NCBI GenBank assembly: GCA_030549495.1
Contig: JAUIRK010000735.1
Coordinates: 62,001 to 126,000, forward strand
DNA: 64,000 bases
Direction of reading: 5' to 3'
Origin: Nectonema munidae
Lineage: Eukaryota > Nematomorpha > Nectonematoida > Nectonematidae
Shown here: positions 6,300-61,031 of the stretch, one piece after another
Numbering within the stretch: the first letter of the stretch is position 1
Layout of the letters: each line of letters starts with the position of its first letter
The notes under the pieces: model-generated
The model's database searches: none
What the model was told of the DNA's origin: nothing
The model's input: only the letters and a program-made list of their open reading frames with translations
Position numbers and translations under genes: made by a program

Positions 6300-7593
6300 C
6301 AAATTAAACGTTTTGCTCCAGACCTTCAGGTTCCATTATCGCTAATGCTTTGCTAGGTTTTGGCACACTCCCAAATTTATTGAAGAAGTCAAAAATTTGT
6401 CTTCTAAAAACCAATTGATCAGGTTTATTTATCTGCATGTGACAACTTATACAAAATCCAAGCTTGATTTATAGTCGTATCGATTAGGTGCGTAAAAATA
6501 GGCCAGTACCATTTCTTACCACGCACACAGCAACGATATTGTGCTATATTCTGATCCATTTGGTTGACCCACCCCATTTCATTATATTTTCTTTTCTTAA
6601 GAAGAGTATCTTGAAGTCACTCTCAAAGTTCCGGCATTGAGACAATTACTAATGCCCAGTGCAGACCTGTTGTCTAAACATTGCCACCTATTGCTTCCAC
6701 CTTGACTACTTAATATTTTATGAAATTCTCTTTTTTCATTTTTTAAGTCTTTCAAAGAAACCTTTGGAAAGGAAAAGTAATTGTCTGTGATGATGTGATA
6801 ATTGTTTCCCAAACACTTGTTATGACTTTCAGCAAATTTCAACAATATTGAAGCTCCAACTCCAAATTCAGAACTATCAGGGCTTTTTCCTTAATACATG
6901 TCAAAGTTTACGCAGTATCCAGGTGAGACACAGTGAGACCACTGTTTGTATCTGAACCTCATCGGCTTGCCTTTGATAAACTGCTTGCTACAATGATTTC
7001 TAAAGTACGGTATCATTGTTTCATCAATTGAATGAAATTCTTTTATTGGCATATACTTTTTAAAAGTTTCCTTCAAATTTTTAAACACCATTCTAATTTT
7101 GGTAAATTTGTCAGTAGCATCAAGCCTTGTGTCATGACAAAAATGCAGATATTTCTTTATTCCTTCAAACCTTTGTCTTCTCATAGATCCTGAATTGAGT
7201 GAGTTGAAACAATCTTCTTTCTTCTCAAAATACATTCTTGTTCTTGACAAACTCGTATAGTCGTCACACAATATCAAAAAGCCTATAAAGCAAAGCATTT
7301 CTTCTCTTGTTACGTTCAAAAGATCATTTTTTATGTAGCATAGACATTAGTAAAGACAACGATCGTCTCGATTAATTCAGGCAGAACAACTTGGAAGGAC
7401 ACAAAGGCTGATCATAATAAAAAAGTCCGTATACTGGAAGAAATTCTTTTTTCAAGTTGAAATCAGTGTTCAAAGCACTCCAAAAAACTTTAGAATTTCC
7501 TTTTTGATTTTTCAGGTTCCGTATTATCCTCCTCTCTTTCATATTCGTACAAATTAACAATAATCCCAGATGCAGCAAGTTTCGTATATGCAT
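6300..7593 (-). pseudogene. Degenerate piggyBac-type transposase
   Basis: Reading on the minus strand, 7593 to about 7372 gives the N-terminal PLCPSKLF/ELIETIVVFTNVYA-like block in broken frames. 7319-6891 is the best-preserved part, with HSIDETMIPYF (first catalytic Asp) and the RYKQWS block. 6845-6597 continues with TDNYFSFP (second Asp). Below 6597 the frame reads WVNQMDQNIAQYR...RGKKWYWPIFTHLID, the usual third-Asp region. There the expected GVD appears as WVN, so the third catalytic Asp is lost. Frameshifts and stops separate the blocks. I found no clear TTAA termini. PiggyBac enzymes cut and paste at TTAA, and this copy is inactive. Confidence 0.85.
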
Positions 7594-14178: not shown

Positions 14179-17100
14179 CTGAAGCAAAGCAAAAGATTCA
14201 AATGAAAAAAATATGCAAAAAGTAAACTCTCACAAATCCTCAATTTTTAAATCAAAATTCGTTAGGGCGGTGAAAAATCGAATTATGAAAAAATTAATTA
14301 TTTTGGCTAAAAGTTTATCCATCACAAACACACCACACATATATTTATTGTACAAAGTTACTATATGTGGTTATTTCACGAATTTTTCTCCAAATTTATT
14401 TCTTCTTTTAGCAAGATGTACAGGTTGATTAGTTAGTCAATTACTTGCTAAATTGACAATTGAATTAGCATTCTATTTGATAAAGACAACTTTTTTGTCT
14501 GTACAAAGTCATATGTACCTCTATCGATCTTCTTAAGTATAAAAAAAGAGCTCTAATTGTCTGTTAGATCTAATTGTACCAGCTGCACGAAAACCTTTTT
14601 TCCTCAAGTAAATCATCAAGTCATAACTGTTAAAAAATGTCAAAATAGAGTTGATGTTTTTCGGGAGTTGAAACTTGAAGAATTTATTGTCAGTTGATTC
14701 ACTACTCTTGTACTCAAGGGCATTTTTGAAATATTTTCTTCTCAACCTTCATATATTTTCAAGTAGTAAGGATATTGACTTGGTATGTAATAAAAAATTA
14801 TGCCGCTTTAATTTAAAGGAACATTAAAAGCAAAACGGATGAAAAAAATATGCAAAAAATTTAAATACGAGTTATGAAAAGATTAATTATTTTGTTTTTT
14901 CAATTTTAAATATGAAGGTCTGTTGAGATACAAAAAAGTTAGGATAAGCACCTCGTAGAAATATCTGAGTGGAAAATGTCATCGTTATATGTTATAGCAG
15001 ACATGTGAAGGATTAAAAGTGCAAATGAAAAAGTAGATTGTTTAACAGAATGCCCCAGAAAAATCTTAGGGGTCCATGGAGACTTTAAAAAAGCGCATTG
15101 AAGACACGCTTATATGTTGATGTCTTCTTATTTGGGGTTGCTGGTATTAAAATTTACTTCACATAACGGTAGTTTCATTCGTAAATAAGTAATGACTTGC
15201 TGTCATGGGAACTTTTAGCGTGACTAAACTCTCATATAAAGAATGCAACCCTTTTTGAAATACTATTAAGGGACTATTTTAGTAAAATAGCATAAAAACT
15301 TATGCTGCACCTCACTCATCCAGAACTACGAATATCACTTCTGAGTTGGTATAAAGCAAGCTTATATTCTCTTTAGTATTCGTATAACCAGGGGGGGGGG
15401 GGTGGGTATACATGAATGTGAAAAAAAAATTTTAGTACCCTACCTTTAATAAATAGTATACAACAAAAAATACAAAAAAATACAATAAATTTAATACAAT
15501 AAAAAACATTTTTCAATTTCAATATTGCAGTAATTTAATAATTAAAAAATTAAAAAAAAAATTATTTTTTTTTATCAAAATTTAATAAATTTAAATTACC
15601 TCTTTGAACATTTTCAATCCTAGTTATGGACGTGATAAAAATTTTCGAAAAAATTTGAAAGTATATTGTATTATAGAATATTGATTCAAGGTTCCTTTTT
15701 TTTTGTTTTTTTTCTAATTTAATTTAAAGCAATAAAAAACTAATTTAATTAGTTTAAACTATGTATGCTTATCTTACACATAATGAAAAATCAATATTTT
15801 TATATATATTATCTAAGAAATCTAGACATTTTAAATGTAAATTTTATTGGGAAATATTTATTCTAAATTTTTTCTTTTATTTTTTGTACTTAATTTTTAA
15901 ACTTTAGTATAACGTTGTATTTTTTTAAGCATAATGGAAAGTTTATGCCGATACTGTGGGAGAAGCCTTTGCAATTTGAATAAAACTAACAAAGAAAGGC
16001 ATATTGAATCATGTTTTGAAAAAAGTAAGCAATCTAAAAAAGAAAAAGTGTTGGGAATATTGAAAAGTTTTTTGCGAAGAAAAGTAAGAAATGTGAAAAC
16101 GTTTCCAATACCTGTTTACAAAAAAAGAAACCATTTTCTGCATCCGTAGAAATATTAAACATAACAAAAAGCATAGTTCAAGAAGTTGTACAAAGAATAG
16201 ATAGAGGATTTCAAACGAAAAAATCGATGAATTTGAACAACTTGAAAATAGACTTTAACAACAATATTGTACCGTTAAAAAAAGAAGAATCTATCCAAGT
16301 GAATAAAATTAAAAAGTGTGGAGGGTTTAAAGTCGGAAAAAACAGTGATGGTCAATCTTTATCTATTCACAAGTTTGAAGAATGTGGTTTTATATATGAG
16401 AATAAGAGCTTTCATCACGAAGATTGTGCAAATAATAATTATATTTTGATTGATGAAGAAACAAAGTTAAATATTAATGTTAAATGTTTCGATTTACAAT
16501 ATGAAAAAAAAATTATTAAATTGATTGAGAATTCTTCCAAGTCCCATGATGGAATGATCAGTTATAACTTTACATATTTTTCGCACTTTCAGTTGAATGA
16601 AAGACTGAAGTGTGTTCAAAACGAAAAAAGATCATTGCGACTGCAACTTCTTAAAAAAAGTCATAAATTATCAGGTTTAAATAACACGCTATCATTATAT
16701 CAAAGGTTTTTACTGTCTCTATCTGAAAACAATTTACCAAGACTTGGTATCATACTTGAATCCGTTTTTAGAAAGAACAAGAATATAAAAACAGTCATTG
16801 AAAAGTTTCAAATGGCAATAAAAAATGTTTATTCTTTCAAGTATTCAATGGACAAAAAAAATTTAGCACTCTTGGTTTTAAAGTTTGGTGGTCCAAGTCT
16901 TTTAGGTATTTTGCATAATGCATGAGTTTTTCCAAGTGTTTCGACAGCATATAGAATGTGTAACGGCTACAATGTTATAACTTCATCAGTTAAAAGTTCA
17001 GCTACAGAATGTTTTGAACAGAATTTTAATTCACAAAGACTTTTTGGATTATCACTCAAAATTGATGAAACCTTCCTCGAACCTACTCTTTCATATAGTT

Positions 17101-20100
17101 CTAATGATAATCTTGTATACGGACTTTGTAAACAACATTCAGAATGCAAAAATCTTTTTATAAATGATTACGAAGATATCGAACAAATAGAAAACTGGCT
17201 TAAAAATGGAGAAATTCATGTACCAAGTGAGTGTTTTTCTGTTGGAGTGAACTGCTTGAATGCTGCTAAATCTATTACTCCTATTTTGTTCTGGCCAAGT
17301 TGCAAACGCAACAATTATGATTTTCTCTATAAAACAATCAATGCCTTTTTGACTACTTTGAAGTCAAAATTTAATGCAAGCTTGTACAATTTTTGTACTC
17401 ATGGAGATCCTTGTAGGAGGAGATTTTTTTCACAATTTTTGAATAAACCTTTGGATTCCAGATTTGAATGGTTTCATTACATATCTGATTTACCTTTCAT
17501 CGATTTAATTGCTGGAATGAATAAAGAAACTTGTAACTACGATCCAAAACATGGTTAAAAGAATGTGGCACTATGTTTTGAAGGAAAAACTGTGCTTCAA
17601 GTCTACAAATGTAAAAAAGGAAGAGATACAAAATTTTTTCCATGGAAAAAATGATGTTAGGTCTTTGACCATGCCATCTGATAAGCAAAATGTCTCTTGT
17701 GCGACTGAATTCCTCTTGACACTCAAAGAAAAATCGAAGAAGGAAATTTAAATTTCCGATTAACGCAAATACAAAAAGAACTATATCAGTTTTCCAAAGT
17801 AATCGATGGCTTACTAGCATGGTACGTTTACACAGATATTGATATTTCAGAACAACTTCGAAAGTTCTCGTGTGCTTCGTACTTGCTCTTATTTTTACCA
17901 CAAGCAAACAATCTTTTTATTCCTTCTCAGCTTTATCATGATATACAAGCATCCTTTCAAGACGCCATATTTTGTGCCGCCAAGTCAAAAATTTTTTACA
18001 CCAACAGAACCTCTTTATTTTTTATTAAATGGTACTGATCCTTTAGAATAGTTATTTGGAAATCTCAAAATGAGATTTAATGGTTTACACATGTCTCATC
18101 TAGAAGCCGTTAATGCGTGCTCTTCTCTTTCGGTTTGTGATCAAATACTTTCACAGGATTGTTTTAGGGGTAAAAAATCTAGAACGATGAAACGATTATG
18201 CTTAGATTATTCTAATCCTAACTCTTGGAATGCTGATTTATTGACGCTTGAAAATGTGAATATTAAAAGCTGTTGGATGAAAGGCTACTATGAAGCTTGC
18301 TACCTGTCTGAAGCTGATGTTGACAGTTTGGTCAATAAGAGAGTTACGTTAAGGTGTCCATATCGAGAAGGCTGCTTAATTGGAGTTAGACTTTCAACTG
18401 AAGATCCTTTTCTATTAGAAGAAAATAGAAATAGTGCTCTGGTGTTTCGTCTGAATGAAAAAGATTTTACTTCTATAGAAGCTGTCAGAAGTAATAAAAG
18501 AGAAGCACGAACCAACAGTATATATAGATGGAACCAAAGTTTATAAATCAACTTGTCTAAAAAATTTAATCAGGAAAACTCCTTTGAGCAAAGATAGGTT
18601 GAAAAGAGTCAGGGGTCTCTCTTTAGAAACACTGAAGGATCCAAACACAGAAGAGATTTTGGACAATCTCCTTTATATTAATGACTGTGATATAGTCGAA
18701 GATAAAGTTGATGTTTTTTTAGTTAAACAAATTTTTGATTCTGAAAAAAAACCTTTAAATTATGTAGAATACGACAAAGAAAAAGGCAATTTTACTTTAC
18801 TTTTATTAAAGCTGAAAACTAAGATAGTCAATGAAAAGATATATTGGACTGAAAATTCCCAAGAGGAATTTAAATCGTGCTTACAAAAATGTACACCCAT
18901 CAAGCCATCAATTGACTTGGACCCTCCTGTTGGGTGCAGCAAGTTTTCTTTTACTAAAGAATATAAAGAAATTCTTTTTGCAGAGGAAGAAATAAAGAAT
19001 GGAAATGAAAAAAAATGCAAAATTTGTATGAAAAATGTTAATGATAAAAAACTTATTGAGCATATTGCTGGGCATTATATAAGAAAAGAAACCTTTGATA
19101 CAATTATTTGCGGACTCTGTGGTCTCAAATCAGAAAATTGTTCAACAAAGGTAGAATTCAGCTCAAAAAAGGGAAAAGAACATTGTTTTAAAATTGTCAT
19201 GTCAGATTGTACCAACTACAGTAAAAGCATGAACATAAAGTCAACATACAATAAACCTATAATATGTCCTGAAAATAAGTGTAACTGTGTTGTTTGGACA
19301 TTGTGCTTAGAAGAGCACTATAAAAGTTTACATGGAAAAAGTGTTCCTCCACAATATGTGGTAGATGCAAAAATAAAAGATAAAATTTTAAATAAAAAAT
19401 GACTTTACAACATGTTTTTCATAAAAAACAGATACATATATTCAATTTCTCAAAGCTAAATATGAAAGCGACAAATAAATATAGAGTGACAAGGGTGGTA
19501 TATCCAAAAAAGGACAGTTTTTTTAAGTACCAATACAGTTATAAAGGGTAGGTGGTGTCTTGCAAACTTTTGAAACTTTTTCAATCCAGTACCCTATGGG
19601 CCTGTATTTTCCCATATTGAACCCTCCCCCTGGTATAACTATGTTTACGCGTTAGGGTTAGTAAAATAAATTTTATAAATAAAATTTCAAAATAAAGAAA
19701 AATATTTTTCTGAATGAAGAAGTTATCGTTCTGTATCTGTTTGGGGTATTTTAATTTGTCAGGAGGTCTAGAGCAAAAAATGCTGGGAAGTCCGAAATGG
19801 AATACTAATTTATCTATAAAAATAATGCATCATACGGTGGCTGGGAATTGAGTTAATGCGGTATTTGAGAACAACCAATCAGATTCAAACGCATCTTTTG
19901 GCCATTCAAAGAAGGCTCTTTTGACACATTTTTACAGCATTTTGAATTCATTTTTTCATGAATAATTTTTTGAAATTGAGTTTAATTTCGTTTTAAAAAT
20001 GTTCAATTATTTGTGATATATAATAGTTATTTATAAAAATAATATTTATGCATAAATCAGATATATGTTTTAAACAATTAAATGACACTAAATGAGATGT

Positions 20101-23100
20101 GAGCAAAGTTTAATTTCCAATTCAATAAAAATTAGCTTTCTTCAAATTTAAAAATAAATATCACTTTTTTTAAAAAATGCAAATAATCCTGGATTGCATA
20201 AATTTGAAAGGGAAATGCAAATAAGTGCGTTTGAATTGCAAAAGGGTGGGATAGAAATAAAAATGGTAAGTTCAATGGATAAACATTTTCCAAGGAAAAT
20301 AACACAAAACTTTAGCTTAATGTTTAACCTAGTAGACACGTTTTAGTAAAGGTAATATCGATAAGAAAAATCAATTTATGAATCTGTCCATTTTGATTCG
20401 AAAAAAGACCTAGGCATTTCTCACCTGTTAAGACATAGCTAGATGTGCCCATTGTACCCCCAATCAAAACAGGTTGGCCAGTCAATTGGTAGTCAACGGG
20501 AATGAGAGGGTGGTTGGGTGGAAAAGCGCGGGTTGAGCCTTTTCTATGAACAAGAAGAGATCTGGGATGTCCATCGACCATGTGTTGCTCAATCTTGGCA
20601 ATGTTGTGCGAAACGTCATATATGAGGTGCATGTCAAGGTCATCGGGCGAGCAGGCGAACTGCTTTGCAAACGCTTGTCTGCACAAAAAGGTCATGGTGG
20701 TGCGATTGACCCAGGCAAAGTTGGCGGCACAAGCCATGGCTGACATGTAGTCAGCGCCTTCGCTGGAACCGATGCGCGCACACGCGAGCTGCCTGTCATT
20801 GACGTCAATGTGATCTCGCTTCATCGCTTTCTCCATCGCCACCAAAGCATCTGTGGCCACTTGATGGCCAAAGCCTCGACTTCCTGAATGCACCATCACA
20901 CAAACCTAAAATATAGAATAAACACAATTGATATACAGTGAAACCTCGAGTATCCGAATTTTCGCGTATCCAAACAACGAATGTGACCATTTAAATTCTA
21001 AAGGAAGAAAGAAGGAAAAAAAATTTCACGTATCCGAACACTCCCTCACCTAAAAAATTTCTTTTTCTACGAGCATGTTCGGATACTTGGGGTTATTTGT
21101 TTTCGCGCATGAAGGAAATATTTAGTCGAAGATCGTTACTAATATTCATATTCATTCAGATATTTACATTTTAAATTTTTTGAAAATTCTTATCATGTAT
21201 AAATAACAAAATGATGCATATTCATTCAGATATGTTATAAATTGTTCAAAAATTTTTGAAATGTGGGGATTTAATTTAATTTCATTTTTTGATTAGTAAA
21301 TTCTTACTAATTTTTTTTTATCTAATATTATATTTTGACACCCTTATAACGTTTTTTTTAATTAAATTGTATCGCTTTTCAAAAAAAGTATTAAAATTTA
21401 CAAATCAAAAAACGGGTATAACAAAAGATGAAAGTAAATAATTATCTAAAAAATTAGTCAAATTTATCCAAAAACTCTCTATGACTATAGATCATGAGTA
21501 GGGTGATACTTTGACAAAGAAAAAATGTCCCAAAAAGAGTAAAAACAGCAAAAAAAACTGATATTTCTTGTCATATAAGCTGTTCTTTAAAAAGGTTCAT
21601 TCTTATTTTTTGTCATTTTGCACGCTTTTAAAATTCTGAAATCTTTTCCTATCTTTTAAAATTATATAGGAAAATTGAGCAAACTTTTATGTCGACTTAA
21701 AAGGGATCCGATCCGTGTATCTTGGGTATTAATGATCTTATACCACTTGACATGAACAAATCTGCGAAAGAATATGCCTCATTAAAAAAATAAAACGTGG
21801 GGTATAGAAATATTTTAATATGGAAATTCAAAGGAGACAAAAGAAATTTCAGAGAAGCAGGCATAGCGTTGAGGAGGCGAAATATCACATCCTGATGAAA
21901 TATTTGTGTATTCATCAATAGTTTTTTACAACTTGTTTACTATATTTCATAATAACATTTTGATCGCTTGTCAGCACCACTTTGTTTATTTTTTACTTTT
22001 TAATAAATAAAAATAATGTAACTATATAAAATATAATTAATTAATATAGACAAAATAAACGCTACTACACCAAATGCATAGCAAAATAAGATGAGCTGAA
22101 ACTTAAACAAAATTAAAGAAACAATGTAAATAGCAAAAGGGAAGCATACTCAACGAAAATAATGAAAAGATGATTGCGATTAAATGCAAAATCTGGTAGT
22201 GTAGGACTTCTCATGTTTATTTTGTCATACTTTTTTGTTAGGTAAGTCACACCCTGAAAATTTGATTTAAATATGTATAATTCCGCTGAAAATGAAAGCT
22301 GATGATTTTTGTCTTTCAATTTTATATTGATGCGGAATTTTTCAAGCAAAATGGCACAAAAATCTTTAAGTTCCACCGAAAGGCTGGAATATATATAAAC
22401 CGTTTGGGTAAACTTCTCAACTGTGAGCGAATTATTAAACAAAAGTGGCTGTAATTAGACATTTAATAACACTGGTAACAAATTTTTATTTTTTTCTTTG
22501 GCAGACCATCTAGGAGTGTTTTCTGGGGTTTTGAAGGTCGCTGATTACGAATATAACATTGGTTTTGTCTGATTGGCTCTAGTTTAGAAGATACTGATAG
22601 CCTCAAATAAGCCTAAACTGCTAAAATTCTCCCTGAAATACTTCAATATAGAAGCAGTAAATAATAATATCAGAAAATACATAATAATTATTATGTATGT
22701 AGTGTTTTTAAAACAGTATTTAAGAATTTTCTTTTTAATTCTTTTCCTTTTTTATTCCAGAGTTGAAAATGAGTTCCAGAGAGAAAATGAGTTCTTCTAA
22801 AAGACGTTGTAGATATGAACCGATGTCTTTTGTTACATCTGTGGACAGTATATGATGGCACAACAAAAGAGGAATATTACAGACTTTGTCAAGAGGGCGT
22901 ACAAAGCATACTTCGATATGAAACTAGGTGACCAAGATAAGTCTTGGGCCCCACATATGGTGTGCAAAACCTGTGTAGAAAGTCTCCGCGGTTGGACCAA
23001 TGGTAAGCTGAAGTTGAAGTTTGCTGTACCAATGGTGGAGAGAGCCCAAGAATCATTTTGATGACTGCTACTTCTGTATCAATGATATGACGGGGTTTAA

Positions 23101-26100
23101 CAAGCACAAGAAAGCAAATTGGCAGTATCCGAGCCTGGATTCTGCTATCCGTCCTGTTGCGCACTCTGAGGATCTACCTGTGCCTGTTTTCACCAGTCTG
23201 CCTGAAATCGATGAAACCGAAGAGATTCCAGCTGATCTTTCAATATCAAGTGGTGATAGCTGTAGTGACTATGAAGAACCCTCAAATGGCCCTCAGCTTT
23301 TCAATCAATCTGAACTTAATGACCTAGTGCGAGACCTTTGTTTGTCGAAGGAGCAGTCTGAAGTTCTTGCATCACGACTCCAAGAGAAAAACATTCTTGA
23401 TTCTGGCACAAAAGTAACATACTATAGGACAAGGGAAGGCAGCTTGCTTCGTTTCTTTTCTAAAGAAGATGACCTGGTCTTTTGTAATGACGTTTCTGCA
23501 CTTCTTAACTGCATGGGGATCTCGTCATATGACCCAGCAGATTGGCTCTCTTTATAGATAGCTCGAAATCAAGTCTAAAAGTTGTACTTTTGCATAATGG
23601 CAATAAGTTTGCTCCTGTACCAATTGGCCATTCTACCAAGATGAAAGAAGAGTATGATGGTATCCAATTTGTTCTTGAAAAACTAAATTACAACACTCAT
23701 AAATGGCTGATTTGTGTGGACTTGAAAATGGTGAATTTTCTGCTTGGTCAGCAAAGTGGGTACACAAAGTATCCCTGCTTTCTTTGTTTGTGGGATAGCA
23801 GAGCAAGAAACCAGCACTGGAGAAGGGAGAACTGGCCAGAACGAGAAAGTCTCGAAGTCGGCACAGCCAACGTCATCAATGAGCCTTTGGTACCCAGGGA
23901 TAGAATCATCTTCCCTCCATTGCACATAAAACTAGGGCTCATGAAGCAGTTTGTTAAGGCGTTGAACAAAGATGGGGATTGCTTCAAGTACATATGCAGG
24001 CAATTTCCAGGTCTTTCCATCGAAAAAGCTAAAGGTGGCATCTTCGATGGACCTCAGATTCGAACGCTCATGAGGGATTCTGACTCACTAATCATATGAA
24101 CAGGGTTGAGTAAATGCTTGGGTGTCCTTCACAGATGTAGTGACAAACTTTTTGGGAAATCACAAAGCTGATAATTACAAGCAATTGGTCCGTAAGATGC
24201 TAACTGCATATGAAAAACTAGGGGCAAATGTGAGTATTAAAGTTCATTTCTTGTTTAGCCACCTCGACAGATTTCCTGGTAATCTTGGTGATTACAGTGA
24301 GGAGCAAGGAGAGAGATTCCATCAAGACATCAAAACAATGGAAGAGAGGTATCAAGGCAAATGGGATGAGCACATGATGGCAGACTACTGCTGGAACCTT
24401 TTGAGAGACTGTCCGAAAGTTGCTCACAAGCGAAAATCGTATAAACGTCAATTTCACTTTTGTGAATAAAATATTGTTTTGTGTGTTCATTGTAACTAAG
24501 AATCTAGTGTATAATAAATGCTTTGCATTAAAATTCAGTAAATTTTTAGCAAATTTTTTGTATATTCTCGAAATCTATGAAAAGTGTTCAGTTATTATAG
24601 GATAAATGAAATGATGTTATATCTAACTTAACTTGTTAGATTGAGATTTTACACTGTCTTTGTGGTTTTAGATTATCATAAAAATCAATATCTGACATTT
24701 TTGCACTATTTAGCCGTTTTTTGTACGTTTAGTTATGGTCGCGAATGGGTGATTTCAGACGAACGACCCCCCTGTGATATCTCCAAAACTAGAGCCAACT
24801 TGAAAAAACAAATGTCAGATTCGGATTCAGCGCCCTTGAAAACCCCAGAAACCAGTCTCACTTTGCCTGCCAAAAATATTGTGTTGACCAGTGTAATTAT
24901 TACGACTCCAATTTCAAAAAAAAATTAGGATAACTTTTTTCAATGTTAAACTGTTCGTTATGAATACAAAAATAACAAAAACTTAACTGATGCCACATGT
25001 AGAATTTGACATTTGTGAAAACGCAATATGAAACATGGTATGTAATACTTAGTAAACTTTATGATTTTGCAAAACAGAATTTGTGAAATAACCTTGAAAA
25101 ATCTTTATCCAGCGATCAATCTTAAACGTGACCAACGGCCTTATTTTGATTTAAAAAAATTGACATTCTATAATTACTCGGAGAGTGAAGAAAATGATAA
25201 CGAGAAAAGTATGTGGAGTCGAAGTCGGAATCACAAAATATTTTCCAACTTCGCATCCCTGATATAAATAACCAAATATTATTCTTAAAAATTTGCCGGG
25301 AGATGGCTTAGTGGTAAGAGTGTGGGTTCTCGATCCGGATGGTCTGGATTGTGACTATCGTTACCGTCTGTCCAGCTATGTAAATTTATGCTTTCTTTGG
25401 ATGCAATACCGACAACTTAAAAAAATATATACCCTTTTTACTTCTAAATTATCTGTTTTTCAAATCTAAATACTCCTTTTTCAATTTTATTTTGTATTTT
25501 AGAAAGAGCGTTTAGAATTTAAAAAAACAATTTACAATTTTAAAAAAGAGAAATTAGAATTGAAAAAAGATCATTTAGAACTAAAAAAAAAGATAATTTA
25601 AAAGTAAAAATGGTATATACACTCAAAAAATTTTTAAAAACTTACTTCTTACATAAGAATTTCAATCAAAGTAAACATTTTTCTTATTAGAAATCTCAGC
25701 TGAAAGATTACATATTTTTCAGAATTGAGGATTTATTGGAACTATAAATAAAAGAATAGGTGATGAATCCTTTTTCTTGTATTATGGAATGTGTAAAAGA
25801 GAAAATTTTTAGGAAGAAATAAAAAAGAATACAAATTAAAGTTTGGAAAAACGTGAAGGAAATTAGCGACTTAGACAAAAAAAACTTCTCATGATGAGTC
25901 AAAAAAGGATACCTGTCCAATGTCTTGAATGCCCATTTTGTTGGCAGCGAATTTGTCAAAGATTTCCTCCACAACTTGGATCTCAGCGTAGTGGTTTCCA
26001 GCACCAAGAGTTCCGAGCTGAGGCAAGCCCCTCTTCTTCGCCTTGAAGCCCACTTTGCGACTATCAGCTGCCAGCATCCTGCCATATTCCTCACAATGCT

Positions 26101-29100
26101 CTTTATCCTCCGGCCAAGCATAACTGGTATAAAAAATTATCAGATACATTCATCAATTTCAAAATACGAATTACAAATACTTTTACATAGATGCTTATAC
26201 TACACATGTAATAGCGAAGCGTACCAAATTAGTCATATAAGTATATACATCAATCAATTCGATATACACAATGATTATAGCTCATCTTCACTGATAAACA
26301 AAAATTCTCGGAAGTGATTTTTGAGTTGCATTTATTGATATCCTGTAGAGTGGTCTAAAAAAATTTTTTTTTAAATCTTCAGATTAGAACCCAGAATTCG
26401 ATCCCATATCTGTTCCAAATATTCAAAATTTCATGCAAAAAAATATTTTTTAAAGGTTGCACATGACACTTGAAAAAAGCTTAATGCAATAACAAACGAG
26501 CTAAAAAGAAAAAATATGTTGTAATAATTTGTGTTTTTATTTATGAAAAAATTAACTGAAACACACATAAATATGTTACTTAGAAAGTCCAGCAACCAAT
26601 GTAACTTTATTGAAATCAGAAAACAGATGCCTATGCTCTTTGACAACTTGCAGTAAGTACTGGAGCTGTGAAGTCTTGAATCAGCTTGATTGCCCTTTTA
26701 GTTCTGAATACTCCTAAATTAATTTTGTGTTCAGGATTTTGAAGACACACTACTTGATATTCTTCAAGTTTTTTTTTAATCATTTTTATTAACTAGCAAT
26801 CTTTTGCCGTCAAAATGTTAGCAAATTTCCAAGATTTTTTTAACTTCATTGATTCACCACTTTTAAATATTCCAGATTGTGTTGGAGTTGGCAAGTTTAT
26901 TCCCTCTTCAAAAATACTTGAACATACTTTTGATGCCTTATTTGTAGAAAGAGATAGACTTGTCACAAATTTAAGGAATTGTGATATAGAGCATTTATTT
27001 TTTCTTTTTTTGCAGTTTTTTAAATTAAACTCATATTCACTGGAATCAGAGCTGAATGATAATTCACTAGAGTTTTTGTCATATTGAGAATGCATAAAAA
27101 CTTTGTTGTTTGAATCTTTCGTCTTTTTGATGGGTGAATATAGGAAATAGAAGCAAGTTTATTTGTCGCATACCCTATTTTTCCTTTTGATTCAATTCGT
27201 TTATTATAAAGAGCTTTATTTTCTTTGCCCAACCAGTTTCCATTTACTTTTGTTATATCAAATAAATTTAATATAGCTTCATTAAATTCTTTTTTAGAAT
27301 ATTTTTGATTTTTTTCATATTCTAAAATAAATTTTTTACTTTAGCAACAATTGCTTGTTCACTAAGTTGAAGAAAACTCATTTTATGCCATAAGCTAGGC
27401 AATTCTTTAAAATTTTTTTTAATCCTTACTTGTTTAAATTTTTCTTTCTCAAATAAGGTATGGTAGACCAAGAATATCAATTTTTTTAGGTAATCTTGTA
27501 AATTTTTTTAGTCTTCAATTCTTGGTAAAGTTCTTGCATGGTTTGTTTTGGATAATAAATTTTTTTCTCCAAATTTGAGAATTTTTATTTAACAGAACTG
27601 GATTTAAATTCAGACATTTTTAGTAGGAAAAAAGAAAGTAAAAAAAATGTGTGTTTCTAAAAATAAAAAACTGTAATATATAAATAAATTTTTATAAATA
27701 ATTTAATTACTAAATATCCTTTTTTAAAAGCCATTTTAATTTAACAAAAGTTGAAGTTTTTATTTGTTTTTTAATTGTCAGTCTCTCATGCAAGAAAAGT
27801 AGATTTTAGAACCTGGGGAAAGTTTTTTTGTTGAAATTCAGAATTTTTTTATTTTTGTTTTTTATAAAATTGTTCACTTGAAAAAACGCCAAAGCAGTAA
27901 AAATAAAATTTTTGAAGACATAACCCTAGTGTGCACTAAAACAATCTTCCAAAGAGCAAATCTGTCAAAACCCGCCCACTCCAAATTTTGTAAACGTGGA
28001 GGCAGAAAAAATTCATCTAGAGCAAAGTTTATCTTAACCAACCAAAGTTTAATTTTATTGGAAAAGAAAGATAAAAGTGATCAAAAAAGTTACCCCTCTC
28101 GAAGAGACCAATCCACGCCCAACTCAATCACATCGTCTAGATCTGATGCCCCCATTGGAATGATCCCCTTTGATCCAACGCCCACAGGAATGTAATTGAA
28201 TAATCTTTGGCAGAGCTCTTCCTTTATCGGCTGTACATCACGCTCAAAGAGATTGGTGCGAATGAGTCTCACGCCACAATTGATGTCAAAGCCTACGCCA
28301 CCAGGAGAAACGACAGACAGCGGATTGGCCATGTCAAAAGCTGCTAAATTGCCAATGGCGAATCCATATCCGGAGTGAATATCGGGTAGGCCTATCGACT
28401 TTGACACGATGCCCGGCAGTGCAGCAACATTGCCTATCTGCTTGACGGCCGGCAAAAAGCCTCCCAAGCCTCCAGCAGCGGCCAGTTTGCAGTGGTTTCG
28501 CAGTTCTTCGAATATCAAGGCTTCAAGCGCTTTATTCACGTAAAACACGCCATCTACCTAAACACTCAACAGATGCAAAGATTGAAAGGAATGTCTCATT
28601 AAAATAGTGCAGGATTCAGAGTGCATCCTTACACCCACTCCCTGAAACTCTAATTTTTAAGCATAACAAAAGTTAAAACAAAAGTTGCTTAACGCATGTA
28701 TTCCACACTCATCTTAAATAGACGCAATCAATTTCTTGATTTAGTCCCAATGCTCCCATTTGGGAACATAAGTAATTTCATCTTCGTCTGCTTTTTTCAA
28801 TGACTTTGCATATAAATCGTCTGCGTTTTTTAGATATCGTCTGATTTCTATGGTACTTAATGGGTTAAGGTACTTTAACAGTCGTCTGCTTTTTCTGGAA
28901 TCAAATTAAAATCGGCTAGTTTTCTGAAAGAGGAGTTGTACTTCAGAATGAACCAATATTCTTTGTGTAAGACATTCATTCACGCTACAATGTGTATATA
29001 TATTATTCAGAAAGGGTTTATTTTATAAAAAAAATAAATTATCCATGGGAACATTTTTTCTACGCCCGCTTATGCATAAATATTCTAAACGCCTATTTGA

Positions 29101-33621: not shown

Positions 33622-35258
33622 ATGTCAAAATCAAACAAACGTTTACGTCTAGAGCTTACACTTGAAGATAAAATTAAGCTAATAAAAGATTCTGATAGTG
33701 TTCCAGGATTTTCTCAAAGGCAATTTGCTGAAAAATACAATATTGGCAAATCAACCGTCGGAGATATACTCCGTAAAAAAGACATTTACATAAAAAAAAT
33801 ATGAAACTAATTCAAGTTTGAAAAAAAAAGATTTGATACTAAATGCAAATATGCTGACATTGACGAAGTGTTATGGAAATGGTTCTTTACAGCACGGAGT
33901 AAAAACATACCGATTTCAGGACCTATTTTACAAGAAAAAGCGCTTTTTTTCGCAAATGAATTAAAAATGAATGAATTCAGAGCCTCAAACGGATGGCTTG
34001 AAAGATGGCGTGCTAGATATTCCGTAAATTTCTATAAAATTAGTGGAGAAAAAACCCCTGAAAATACAGAAAATGTAATATCTGAATTTAAAGTGCGTCT
34101 TCAGGCTATTACAAAAGGTTATTCATCTTCTGATATTTTCAATTGTGATGAAACCGTCTTGTTTTTTCGTGCTTTACCAGAAAAAACTCTTTCAGTAAAG
34201 AATCAAAACTGTAAAGGTGGAAAGAAAGCAAAAGAGAGATTAACTGCTATGCTAGCATGCAGCTCAAGTGGCGAAAAACTTAAGCCGGTAGTGATAGGTT
34301 AATTTTTTACGTTTAAATCATGGCCTTGAAATTTAATATTTTTGTTATTTTAGGAAAATCAATTAACCCCAGATGCTTCAAAGGTATTGATAAAGATAAT
34401 TTACCAGTCATATATTTTGCTAATAGAAAATCTTGGATGACGTCTACCTTGTTTACTAGTTGGATAAACAATATTAACAAGGAAATGAAGCATAAGAAAC
34501 GTAACATATTAATGTTCTTAGATAATGCTAAATCCCACTCTACAGATTTAAGATTAAGTAATGTTACTCTCAAATTTTTGCCACCAAACACTACGTATTC
34601 ACTCCAACCTCTTGACCAGGGAATTATAAGATCTTTCAAGTCTTGCTACAGAAAACTGATGATAACTTCACTTCTCACAAAAATTAACGATTCAAGTTCA
34701 GCTAAAGAACTTTGCCAGAGAATTACAGTATTTGATGCTATTCACTGGATTTCAACAGCTTGGGGAAATATTACCCAACAGACAATCAAAAAATGCTTTT
34801 CTTCAGCAGGTTTTAGCTATTTAAATTAAATACATATAGATGAGAGTATTGAAGATAATCTTGATAAGAATGAAAATCAAGCTCATGAACTGGCTAAAGA
34901 GCTTCAAATAGATGAAGTTGATATATATTTTGACAAAGACTTACCAATTGAAGAAGATTCTGATGTCTGGGAAAAGAACTTAGTCTCTGGTCTCCTTTTG
35001 GATTCTGAAAACATGAAAACTAGCAGTGATGATGAAAAAAATGATACTAGTAATGCATTAGTGAAAAATGTAAAAGATTTATCTCTTATTGAAACTCTTC
35101 AACTTCTTAGAAATATTCATGAAAATACTACAGCAAGATCAATATTGCCACAAGTTTCTAAAATCATTACAGACCTTAAAGATTTGATTGTTCAAAAAGG
35201 TAAAAAAAAAATACAAACTACGATGGATCAATATTTAACAACATTTTTGTTTTTTTAA
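33622..35258 (+). pseudogene. Tigger transposase, two lesions and one short intron
   Basis: CENP-B/psq helix-turn-helix (LTLEDKIKLIKD...FSQRQFAEKYNIGKSTV), then the second DNA-binding domain (MNEFRASNGWLERWRARY), then the DDE core: NCDETVLFF (D1), LMFLDNAKSH (D2), LQPLDQGIIRSFKSCYRK (D3). A 56-bp intron (34298-34353, donor GTTAAT, acceptor TTATTTTAG) interrupts KPVVIG|KSINPRC; splicing it restores the frame exactly. Lesions: one extra A in the A8 run at 33792-33799, and an in-frame TAA at 34827-34829, after which the frame stays open to 35258 (acidic C-terminal tail). In Tigger, D1-D3 cut and rejoin DNA at TA. All catalytic residues are present, so decay is recent. Confidence 0.92.
34298..34353 (+). 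other. Intron in Tigger transposase
   Basis: 56 bp, GTTAAT...TTATTTTAG. Splicing joins ATAG to GAAAATC, giving IGKSINPRC, the conserved Tigger sequence at this place. Without splicing both flanking frames stop. Confidence 0.85.
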
Positions 35259-38640: not shown

Positions 38641-40440
38641 ACAAGTGGTGTAAAATTGTATAATGTTTAAAAATGGGCAAAAGAACTTGATCCTAAGAAA
38701 GAATGGCTAAAGTATTCAGAGACAAATGGCATGGTGCACACAATATCTTGTGATTTATGTCAAAAACATGAGACAAAGTTGAACGCACTCAAAAATTTTA
38801 GTCCCTCTTTCATAGTAGGCATCAACAACACTGCCAGAAAGACAATGTTGTCAAACATTCAAAGTCCGATATGCATGGCAAAGCTTTAAATCTGAACACA
38901 AACCTGCATCCATCATAGATATTACTCCTATTTGGAGATGTGTATCCTCTGCTTTTGTTGAAGAGGAGCAAAAAGTTGCAAAACTGATAGATATTAGCTA
39001 TGATTTGGCAAAAGAAGAATTGCCGTTTAGTAAATATCAAAAAATTGGAGAACTAGAACTACGTCATGGTGTACAGTTAAGCCAGACATACTTGAATGAA
39101 CCAAAGTGTCAAGAATTTACTCACTGTATTGGTGAGACTATGCAAGATGAACTTGTGCAAAGCTTAGTCAAAGCTAAATACTTTCCTGTGATGCTTGATA
39201 GTGCCACTGATGTTAGCACCATTGAATAAGAGGTGATCTTTGTTTTGTTTATTGATGAACAAGGTTGTGTGCAAACTAGGTTCTTGTGATTAAAAAATGT
39301 TAGCCATGCTAATGGCGAAGGCTTAAAACATGCGCTTGAAGACTATTTTATGAGTCTTGGTATCAAAAATTGTGATTCTCAACTGGTTGGCTTTGCCGCA
39401 GGTGGTACAAGTGTGAATTTTGGTTACAAAAAAGGATTAATTTCTCTGCTTAGACTAGCTAGTCCGTGGCTAATAACCATCCACTGTTTGAACCACAGAC
39501 TTGAACTGGCAGCAAGAGATGCTTTTAGTGGCACTTATATTGATGAGATTCTAACTATGCTAAATAAGCTCTATGCTCTATACCATAGAAGTCCGAAACG
39601 AATCCGTGAGATAAAAACGTTTGCTGACATCATGGATGAGCAAATTATTATGCTACAAAGGGCAAATGGTACCAGATGGTTGTAACACAAGAGACGTGCT
39701 TGTGAAAGTCTCATCCCAGGGTATTCAGTCGTCGTTGCTCACTTAGAAAATTGTGCTGAAGATGCCTCAACTCCAAAAGCTGAACAGGCTAAACTGAAGG
39801 ACCATCTTCGCAGGTTAAAAAGTGCCAAGTTTGTTCTCTACCTTATTTTTTTCAAAGATTTGCTCATACTTTTGTCCAATCTGTCTCTCTATCTTCAAAA
39901 AGACAGTGTGGATCTTTTGCAAGCCCAAGCTTTACTCGACACTTTTTACAATAAACTGAATTCAGATGATACGTCTCCACTACCACCTGCCATTCAACAT
40001 ATTGACACCAGTCTCAATGAGAAATCTCCGCCAGCCTTTAAAGAAGTTATCCTAACATCTAATGGCCTTTCTGGTGACAACCTAGAGGACAGAAATGTCA
40101 TTTTCGAGTCAATCTCAGATTGTGTTCATAGAAGTTTTGATGATCTAAAGATAACCCTGTTCTTGGGTCACTGGCAATATTGGATACAGGCAGTTGGCCT
40201 ACTAGCAGTGATGAACTCAATTTATTTGATCATAATGAACTTTTTGTTCTGTTCAAACACTTCAAATTGTTGCTTGAGAAAAAAAGGGTAGACATTGACG
40301 GTGTGTTCTTAGAATGGTATCAATTTAAAGCTTTTCGCAGCAAAACGTTGTCACATCTCAACAGACAGGATCTTTGGAAATCCTTTCTCTCCACATACAG
40401 ATACAATTACCCCAATCTAGCCCATATCCAACGCTAAAGT
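38641..40440 (+). pseudogene. hAT-type transposase pseudogene (BED-finger, ZNF862-like)
   Basis: Reading pieces in order: KWAKELDPKKEWLKYSETNG, ISCDLCQKHETKL (zinc-finger cysteines), HSKSDMHGKALNLNT (finger His), ELVQSLVKAKYFPVMLDSAT (first catalytic Asp region), CLNHRLELAARDAF (conserved CxxH of hAT), RANGTRWL (conserved RW), and a helical region to about 40440. The layout fits hAT proteins of the ZNF862/KIAA-like type (from memory). In-frame stops at 39227, near 39288 and at 39683, plus frame changes near 38820 and 40200, make it inactive. I could not find its terminal repeats. Confidence 0.7.

Positions 40441-45570: not shown

Positions 45571-61031
<15,461 letters not shown>

What the first reader, a model, noticed from the sequence alone, without database searches (positions are those of the whole stretch)
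15388..19633. Animal transposon carrying a mushroom-type, unclassified transposase
Seen: inverted CCAGGGGG ends, TATAA flanking both ends, and one long broken gene. Recalled, not searched: the motif order IDE / SCKR / HGDPxRRRFF / YDPKH.VKRM / FIPxQLYxDI / LLxGTDPLE.LFG / NPxSWxxDL / [10 protein letters not shown] / HxxGHYI / CGLCG / CP.C follows an uncharacterised protein family present in hundreds of copies in basidiomycete fungi. Finding it between transposon ends suggests that family is a DNA transposase and gives its termini and duplication size. It also raises horizontal transfer between kingdoms. The IDE and HGD acids may belong to an RNase-H-like fold (inference).
Basis: partly seen in the sequence, partly recalled or inferred. 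Interest (0 to 1): 0.85.

Follow-up and report, generated by a model that had tools for sequence, protein, structure and literature searches.

The report
Decayed P-element-like transposon in an animal
A broken jumping gene in an animal genome belongs to a large, little-described protein family shared with mushrooms, and its predicted shape shows that the family is a distant branch of the fruit-fly P element rather than a new kind of transposase.

Summary
Window 15389-19632 is one copy of a multicopy DNA transposon. Copies share CAGGGG...CCCCTG ends; the target duplication is 7 bp (GTATAAC here), not TATAA: of 15 insertions scored, 10 have exact 7-bp duplications and 14 have at most one mismatch. 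The window copy is dead: broken frame, two in-frame stops, His at the second catalytic acid position, and a left end shortened between two G runs.

The parts
15382..15388 (.). left 7-bp target-site duplication GTATAAC
   Evidence: sequence; 7-bp rule from 15 insertions
15389..19632 (+). the transposon copy (4,244 bp), P-element-like, dead
   Evidence: ends fixed by comparison with 20 other copies of the same family, one-ended ones included
15389..15402 (+). left terminus CAG + G run; shortened relative to other copies, which carry TTCAAAGCTAGGAAAAAATAGCC between two G runs
15934..16149 (+). N-terminal part of the transposase frame with a CxxC...H...C zinc finger (weak Spin-doc zf-C2H2_12 resemblance, below cut-off); no THAP match
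16038..17558 (+). transposase frame: coiled-coil/helical region and first half of the RNase-H domain, interrupted by an in-frame stop at 16923-16925
17064..17066 (+). first catalytic acid (D of KIDET); matches D337 of P0001, aligned with D230 of the P element
17400..17402 (+). position of the second catalytic acid; reads His here (THGD)
17541..17552 (+). DPKH, the D(2)H motif of the P-superfamily signature
17521..18546 (+). insertion-domain and third-acid region of the transposase, in overlapping frames
18046..18048 (+). third catalytic acid (E of GTDPLE), followed directly by an in-frame stop
18479..19402 (+). C-terminal part: [10 protein letters not shown] segment and Cys/His-rich zinc-finger-like motifs (HIAGHYI, CGLCG, CPENKC...H)
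19610..19632 (+). right terminus TCCCATATTGAACCCTCCCCCTG
19633..19639 (.). right 7-bp target-site duplication GTATAAC

Best explanation
This is a dead copy of a cut-and-paste DNA transposon whose transposase is a deep, THAP-less relative of the P element transposase. Shown: shared ends, 7-bp duplications, recurrent internally deleted derivatives of which 9 of 12 have their own duplication, homology to the mushroom family, a P-like predicted fold and the P signature motifs. Inferred: a dimer held by a long N-terminal helix binds the CAGGGGG ends through its zinc fingers; the RNase-H core (D, D, E) cuts the element out and joins it to target DNA with cuts 7 bp apart; full copies moved the deleted copies in trans. 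A GTP-dependent insertion domain like that of the P element is possible and untested.
Against: The sequence-level link to P is weak: best single stretch E 0.013, no P hit up to E 10 with the animal-type or the fungal profile alone, and no match to the Pfam P-type profile except one of 13 fungal members at E 0.26. No THAP domain was found. The two models are not independent: the 39 rows of the second alignment are all among the 67 of the first. No activity is shown. TM-score to P is 0.37 on the model's length (0.62 on the P chain's).
Confidence: 0.87

Rival explanations
1. A truly separate, new transposase superfamily whose likeness to P is only the common RNase-H-with-helical-insertion plan also seen in RAG/Transib and hAT.
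For: Weak sequence link to P; no THAP domain found; C-terminal zinc-finger-like motifs; hardly any Pfam P-type match. Pieces of ordinary P elements of the same genome align only weakly with the family profile: best P-value 2e-4, 6 of 10 pieces at 0.08 or above, five controls at 0.09-0.49.
Confidence: 0.1
2. A member of hAT or of KDZ (Kyakuja-Dileera-Zisupton), better known mushroom transposon groups.
For: hAT families with 7-bp duplications exist in rust fungi (PMC12730594, passages); KDZ transposons occur in mushrooms (same paper, abstract).
Confidence: 0.02
3. The animal copy came from a mushroom by horizontal transfer (or the reverse) in recent times.
For: Same family in both groups.
Against: 22 fungal rows form one side of a branch with support 100, separated from the other 19 rows by stems of 1.36 and 1.02 changes per column; the window's family groups with animal-type proteins, one of them from Clytia hemisphaerica.
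Confidence: 0.02

Closest known systems
Drosophila P element transposase (PDB 6p5a, 6pe2)
   Same: Best fold match by far in both models; D..D..DxxH..E signature; helical insertion of similar size between DxxH and E (179 residues from D498 to E677 in P0001; 192 from D339 to E531 in P by the published numbers); inverted ends of about 30 bp; P makes 8-bp duplications, this family 7-bp.
   Different: No THAP domain found; another N-terminal zinc finger and C-terminal zinc-finger-like motifs; the long animal-type members have 1,217-1,392 aa; identity 13-16% on the structural matches; GTP use unknown.
Galileo (P superfamily, Drosophila)
   Same: 7-bp duplications; consensus GTAGTAC resembles GTATAAC and GTTTAAC seen here (PMC2775673, passages).
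   Different: Galileo's transposase has a THAP domain and the element has inverted ends of 0.5-1.2 kb (PMC3688188, passages).
'P-Fungi' class of repeat libraries (recalled as a RepeatMasker/Dfam class)
   Same: The name implies a fungal branch of P; listed for the mushroom Pleurotus ostreatus with 10 copies over 46,557 bp, a mean of 4.7 kb (PMC12387193, one table passage), and for Daphnia magna (PMC8594854, one table passage).
   Different: Its sequences could not be compared here; identity with this family is a guess.
Ordinary P-like elements of the same genome (L048-L052)
   Same: By eye the same motif order in these decayed copies: FDEVKL, CDNC, DYIH, DEVLEKFFG.
   Different: They match Pfam PF21787 above its cut-off, some carry a segment that by eye looks like a THAP domain, and they lie at other places in the genome.

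Membership tests
P superfamily (broad) | D (b1), D (b4), E (helix) catalytic triad in an RNase-H fold | tested here: met
   65/65, 62/62, 57/58 of rows with a letter (67 rows), on or beside the expected elements of the model; no residue-by-residue superposition was available
P superfamily (broad) | [C/D](2)H motif right after b5 (P: D339) | tested here: met
   DPKH after strand 494-497; D 63/63, H 59/64; definition from PMC8230255 passages
P superfamily (broad) | Fold nearest to P transposase over core plus insertion | tested here: met
P superfamily (broad) | 7-8 bp target duplications | tested here: met
   7 bp: 10 of 15 exact, 14 of 15 with at most one mismatch
P superfamily (broad) | Match to the Pfam P-type profile (PF21787) above cut-off | tested here: not met
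   0 of 10 animal-type members at E<=1; 1 of 13 fungal members, E 0.26
Canonical P element / THAP9 | N-terminal THAP domain | tested here: not met
   no THAP in the answers; a CxxC..H..C finger instead in 8 of 10 members looked at
Canonical P element | GTP binding by the insertion domain | not testable with these tools
   needs biochemistry
hAT | hAT dimerisation domain (PF05699) | tested here: not met
   not in the answers; the same kind of scan finds it in a hAT fragment of this window
KDZ | KDZ profile match | tested here: inconclusive
   not in the Pfam answers; no KDZ reference was aligned directly
P-Fungi (repeat-library class) | sequence match to the library's consensus | not testable with these tools
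   no repeat library on hand

The most novel reading that the evidence does not exclude
Animals and mushrooms share an ancient THAP-less sister lineage of P elements, present before or soon after the two kingdoms parted, and well over a hundred mushroom 'hypothetical proteins' are its transposases; it shows that the P-type machine does not need a THAP domain and may once have been general in opisthokonts.
Probability: 0.45. Interest if true: 0.6.

Novelty: new variant of a known kind. Interest (0 to 1): 0.5.

Why it matters
It gives a likely function, a fold and catalytic residues to a large mushroom protein family that databases list as hypothetical, and termini and duplication size to its animal side. 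It widens the P superfamily to a branch without THAP domain in fungi and animals, which makes it testable whether THAP binding and GTP use are original to P-type transposition or later additions.

Tried and rejected
Rejected: 5-bp TATAA duplication (0 of 15 exact at 5 bp). Rejected: a known Pfam family by sequence; my first guess, DUF6589, gave no paper and no Pfam hit. Ends of older relatives: of 18 such loci fetched (L023-L028, L036-L047), 14 were scanned and none has a CAGGGG...CCCCTG pair with a 7-bp duplication; an open scan of 7 of them gave pairs that I take for chance, mostly AT-rich; L044-L047 were not looked at. So the 7-bp rule rests on one family in one genome. Relatives in viral contigs: none confirmed with either profile; in bacterial and archaeal genomes: none confirmed with the animal-type profile (two peptide patterns per scan). 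Empty site: the left flank lies in an old repeat (34 matches, itself included), but none of the other places is among the 11 right-flank matches, so no paralogous empty site was found. HzTransib, RAG, ISCth4, Tn5 and Hermes stand below P in the fold lists and were set aside on Z. hhalign of the family profile against single pieces of ordinary P elements of this genome was weak: P 2e-4, 0.0088, 0.02 and 0.065 for four of 10 pieces, 0.08-0.57 for the other six, against 0.09-0.49 for five control pieces. An animal-marker search (PF00110) of the own genome did not complete. P0003's gene model lacks the region of the second D, so that Mycena protein looks incomplete there; the other fungal rows shown have it.

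Full report
What is there. The window is G000:C448:62001-126000 of a 211.6-Mb, 748-contig genome. Two host genes have best PDB matches that fit an animal: an RtcB piece (297 bits to 'RtcB homolog' against 173 for the best of the others; that these are animal and archaeal is recall) and a RAD51 piece (259 bits to 'RAD51 homolog 1' against 224 for 'RAD51' entries such as 1szp, recalled as yeast). A formal animal marker test did not complete. At 15389-19632 lies a 4,244-bp element with one coding strand, broken into eight stop-to-stop stretches in three frames; two of the breaks are stops with the frame continuing behind them (16923-16925, 18049-18051).

Ends and duplications. A 492-bp piece of the gene gives 32 matches in the genome, itself, fragments and older relatives included. 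I fetched 20 places, then 19 more; 21 loci, of 20 different copies, belong to the same close family. They agree at the ends they have. The fuller left end is CAG, a G run, TTCAAAGCTAGGAAAAAATAGCC, then a second G run; the right end, read inward, is CAG, a G run, TTCAATATGGGAAAATACAGGCCC, so the inverted ends are about 30 bp and imperfect. The window copy lacks the stretch between the two left G runs, which is why its repeat looks like a bare CCAGGGGG. There are 16 independent two-ended insertions (L011 shares the flanks of L009, and L015 is a cut view of L035, so neither is counted; L022, L032, L033 and L034 lack an end). L017 was dropped because its left tip is lost. Of the 15 scored, 10 have identical 7-bp duplications and 4 more have one mismatch; L031 has a decayed tip and only a 6-bp match. 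No other length from 4 to 10 bp gives an exact match apart from that one; of 210 cross-copy pairings 0 match exactly and 2 with one mismatch. The targets tend towards GT...AC (GTATAAC, GTTTAAC); position 2 is never A in 14 sites.

Life cycle. The 21 loci are 94.5-96.8% identical to the window copy over the aligned parts. Three classes of internal deletion recur with the same breakpoints (3, 5 and 4 insertions); 9 of these 12 have a 7-bp duplication with at most one mismatch, all different (the other three are L017, L031 and L032). So deleted copies moved after they were deleted, the usual pattern of a cut-and-paste element with non-autonomous followers. The longest open frame seen in the genome with the two window pieces searched is 539 codons, in copy L009; its core was used for searches as it stands.

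Protein family. The L009 core finds three proteins at E<=0.01 (7,995 candidates): P0001 (E 9.9e-95), P0002, and a Mycena rebaudengoi hypothetical protein, P0003 (E 9.6e-13, 23% identity over 96%). A three-sequence profile finds 30, two of them of Clytia hemisphaerica and most of the others from ENA records without a name. P0003 alone finds 161 at E<=0.01, itself included, 120 of them listed; every listed row that names an organism is a mushroom-type fungus such as Mycena, Favolaschia, Schizophyllum or Coprinopsis (the class is my recall), and no animal-type protein of the two earlier searches is among the 120. Animal-type and fungal profiles align over 998 columns with probability 100. A tree of 41 rows puts 22 fungal rows on one side of a branch (support 100) and 18 animal-type rows plus the window's family on the other, with stems of 1.36 and 1.02 changes per column (quick method, 19 of 38 inner branches starred; L009, P0011 and P0020 have an unusual letter make-up). 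That speaks for an old split, not for recent transfer.

How it most likely works. Zinc fingers bind the ends (inferred), the transposase dimerises (inferred), cuts out the element with its D, D, E core and joins it to a target with a 7-bp stagger (the stagger is shown by the duplications; the chemistry is inferred from the fold). The helical insertion sits where P binds GTP; whether GTP is used is unknown.

What is known. P has 8-bp duplications and a THAP domain, a domain said to be absent from fungi (PMC7776569, passages); Galileo has 7-bp duplications with consensus GTAGTAC (PMC2775673, passages). Ordinary P-like elements also occur in this genome at five other places, with the same motif order by eye. 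A repeat-library label 'P-Fungi' appears in a table for a mushroom (10 copies, 46,557 bp; PMC12387193, one passage) and in one for Daphnia magna (PMC8594854, one passage). I recall it as a RepeatMasker class; its sequences are not on hand. In ten paper searches I saw titles and starts of abstracts of the listed rows only (capped at 8, 20 or 40; the larger answers were longer than their lists), and none of those describes this family; most subscription papers are not in that library and repeat-database reports may be missing. I therefore call it a new variant of a known kind: a THAP-less P-related lineage, perhaps already labelled on its fungal side, not described in the listings I saw.

Noticed in passing
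window 6891-7346 (-): Fragment of a piggyBac-like transposase by eye; Pfam PF13843 DDE_Tnp_1_7, E 1e-27.
   Followed up: partly
window 20324-28557 (-): Host RtcB RNA ligase gene in pieces (20324-20905 and 28090-28557); the transposon lies about 0.7 kb beyond its nearest piece.
   Followed up: partly
window 23018-24099 (+): Two overlapping open frames of an uncharacterised protein, without Pfam match at E<=0.001, between the RtcB pieces; perhaps another mobile-element protein (impression only).
   Followed up: no
window 33811-35258 (+): Pogo/Tigger-like transposase remnant by eye; Tc5-type DNA-binding domain PF03221, E 4.6e-17, in 33811-34299.
   Followed up: partly
window 57404-59680 (+): hAT-type transposase remnant with DUF4371 (below cut-off) and hAT dimerisation region; a second similar-looking stretch at 38819-40291 has no Pfam match in the one piece scanned.
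   Followed up: partly
L048-L052 (G000 C51, C606, C366, C154, C525): Decayed ordinary P-like elements in the same genome, so two P-related lineages coexist here.
   Followed up: partly
window 15090-15388: The left flank is itself an old interspersed repeat: 34 matches in the genome including itself, the others 66-85% identical over parts of it.
   Followed up: partly
L023-L028, L036-L047: Older relatives of the same transposase family (L023-L028 at about 63-81% DNA identity), whose ends were not found where looked for: probably more than one wave of invasion.
   Followed up: partly
L009 and L011: Two copies share 1.3 kb of left flank at 96% identity and the same duplication GTTTAAC: one insertion later duplicated, or assembly haplotypes.
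   Followed up: no
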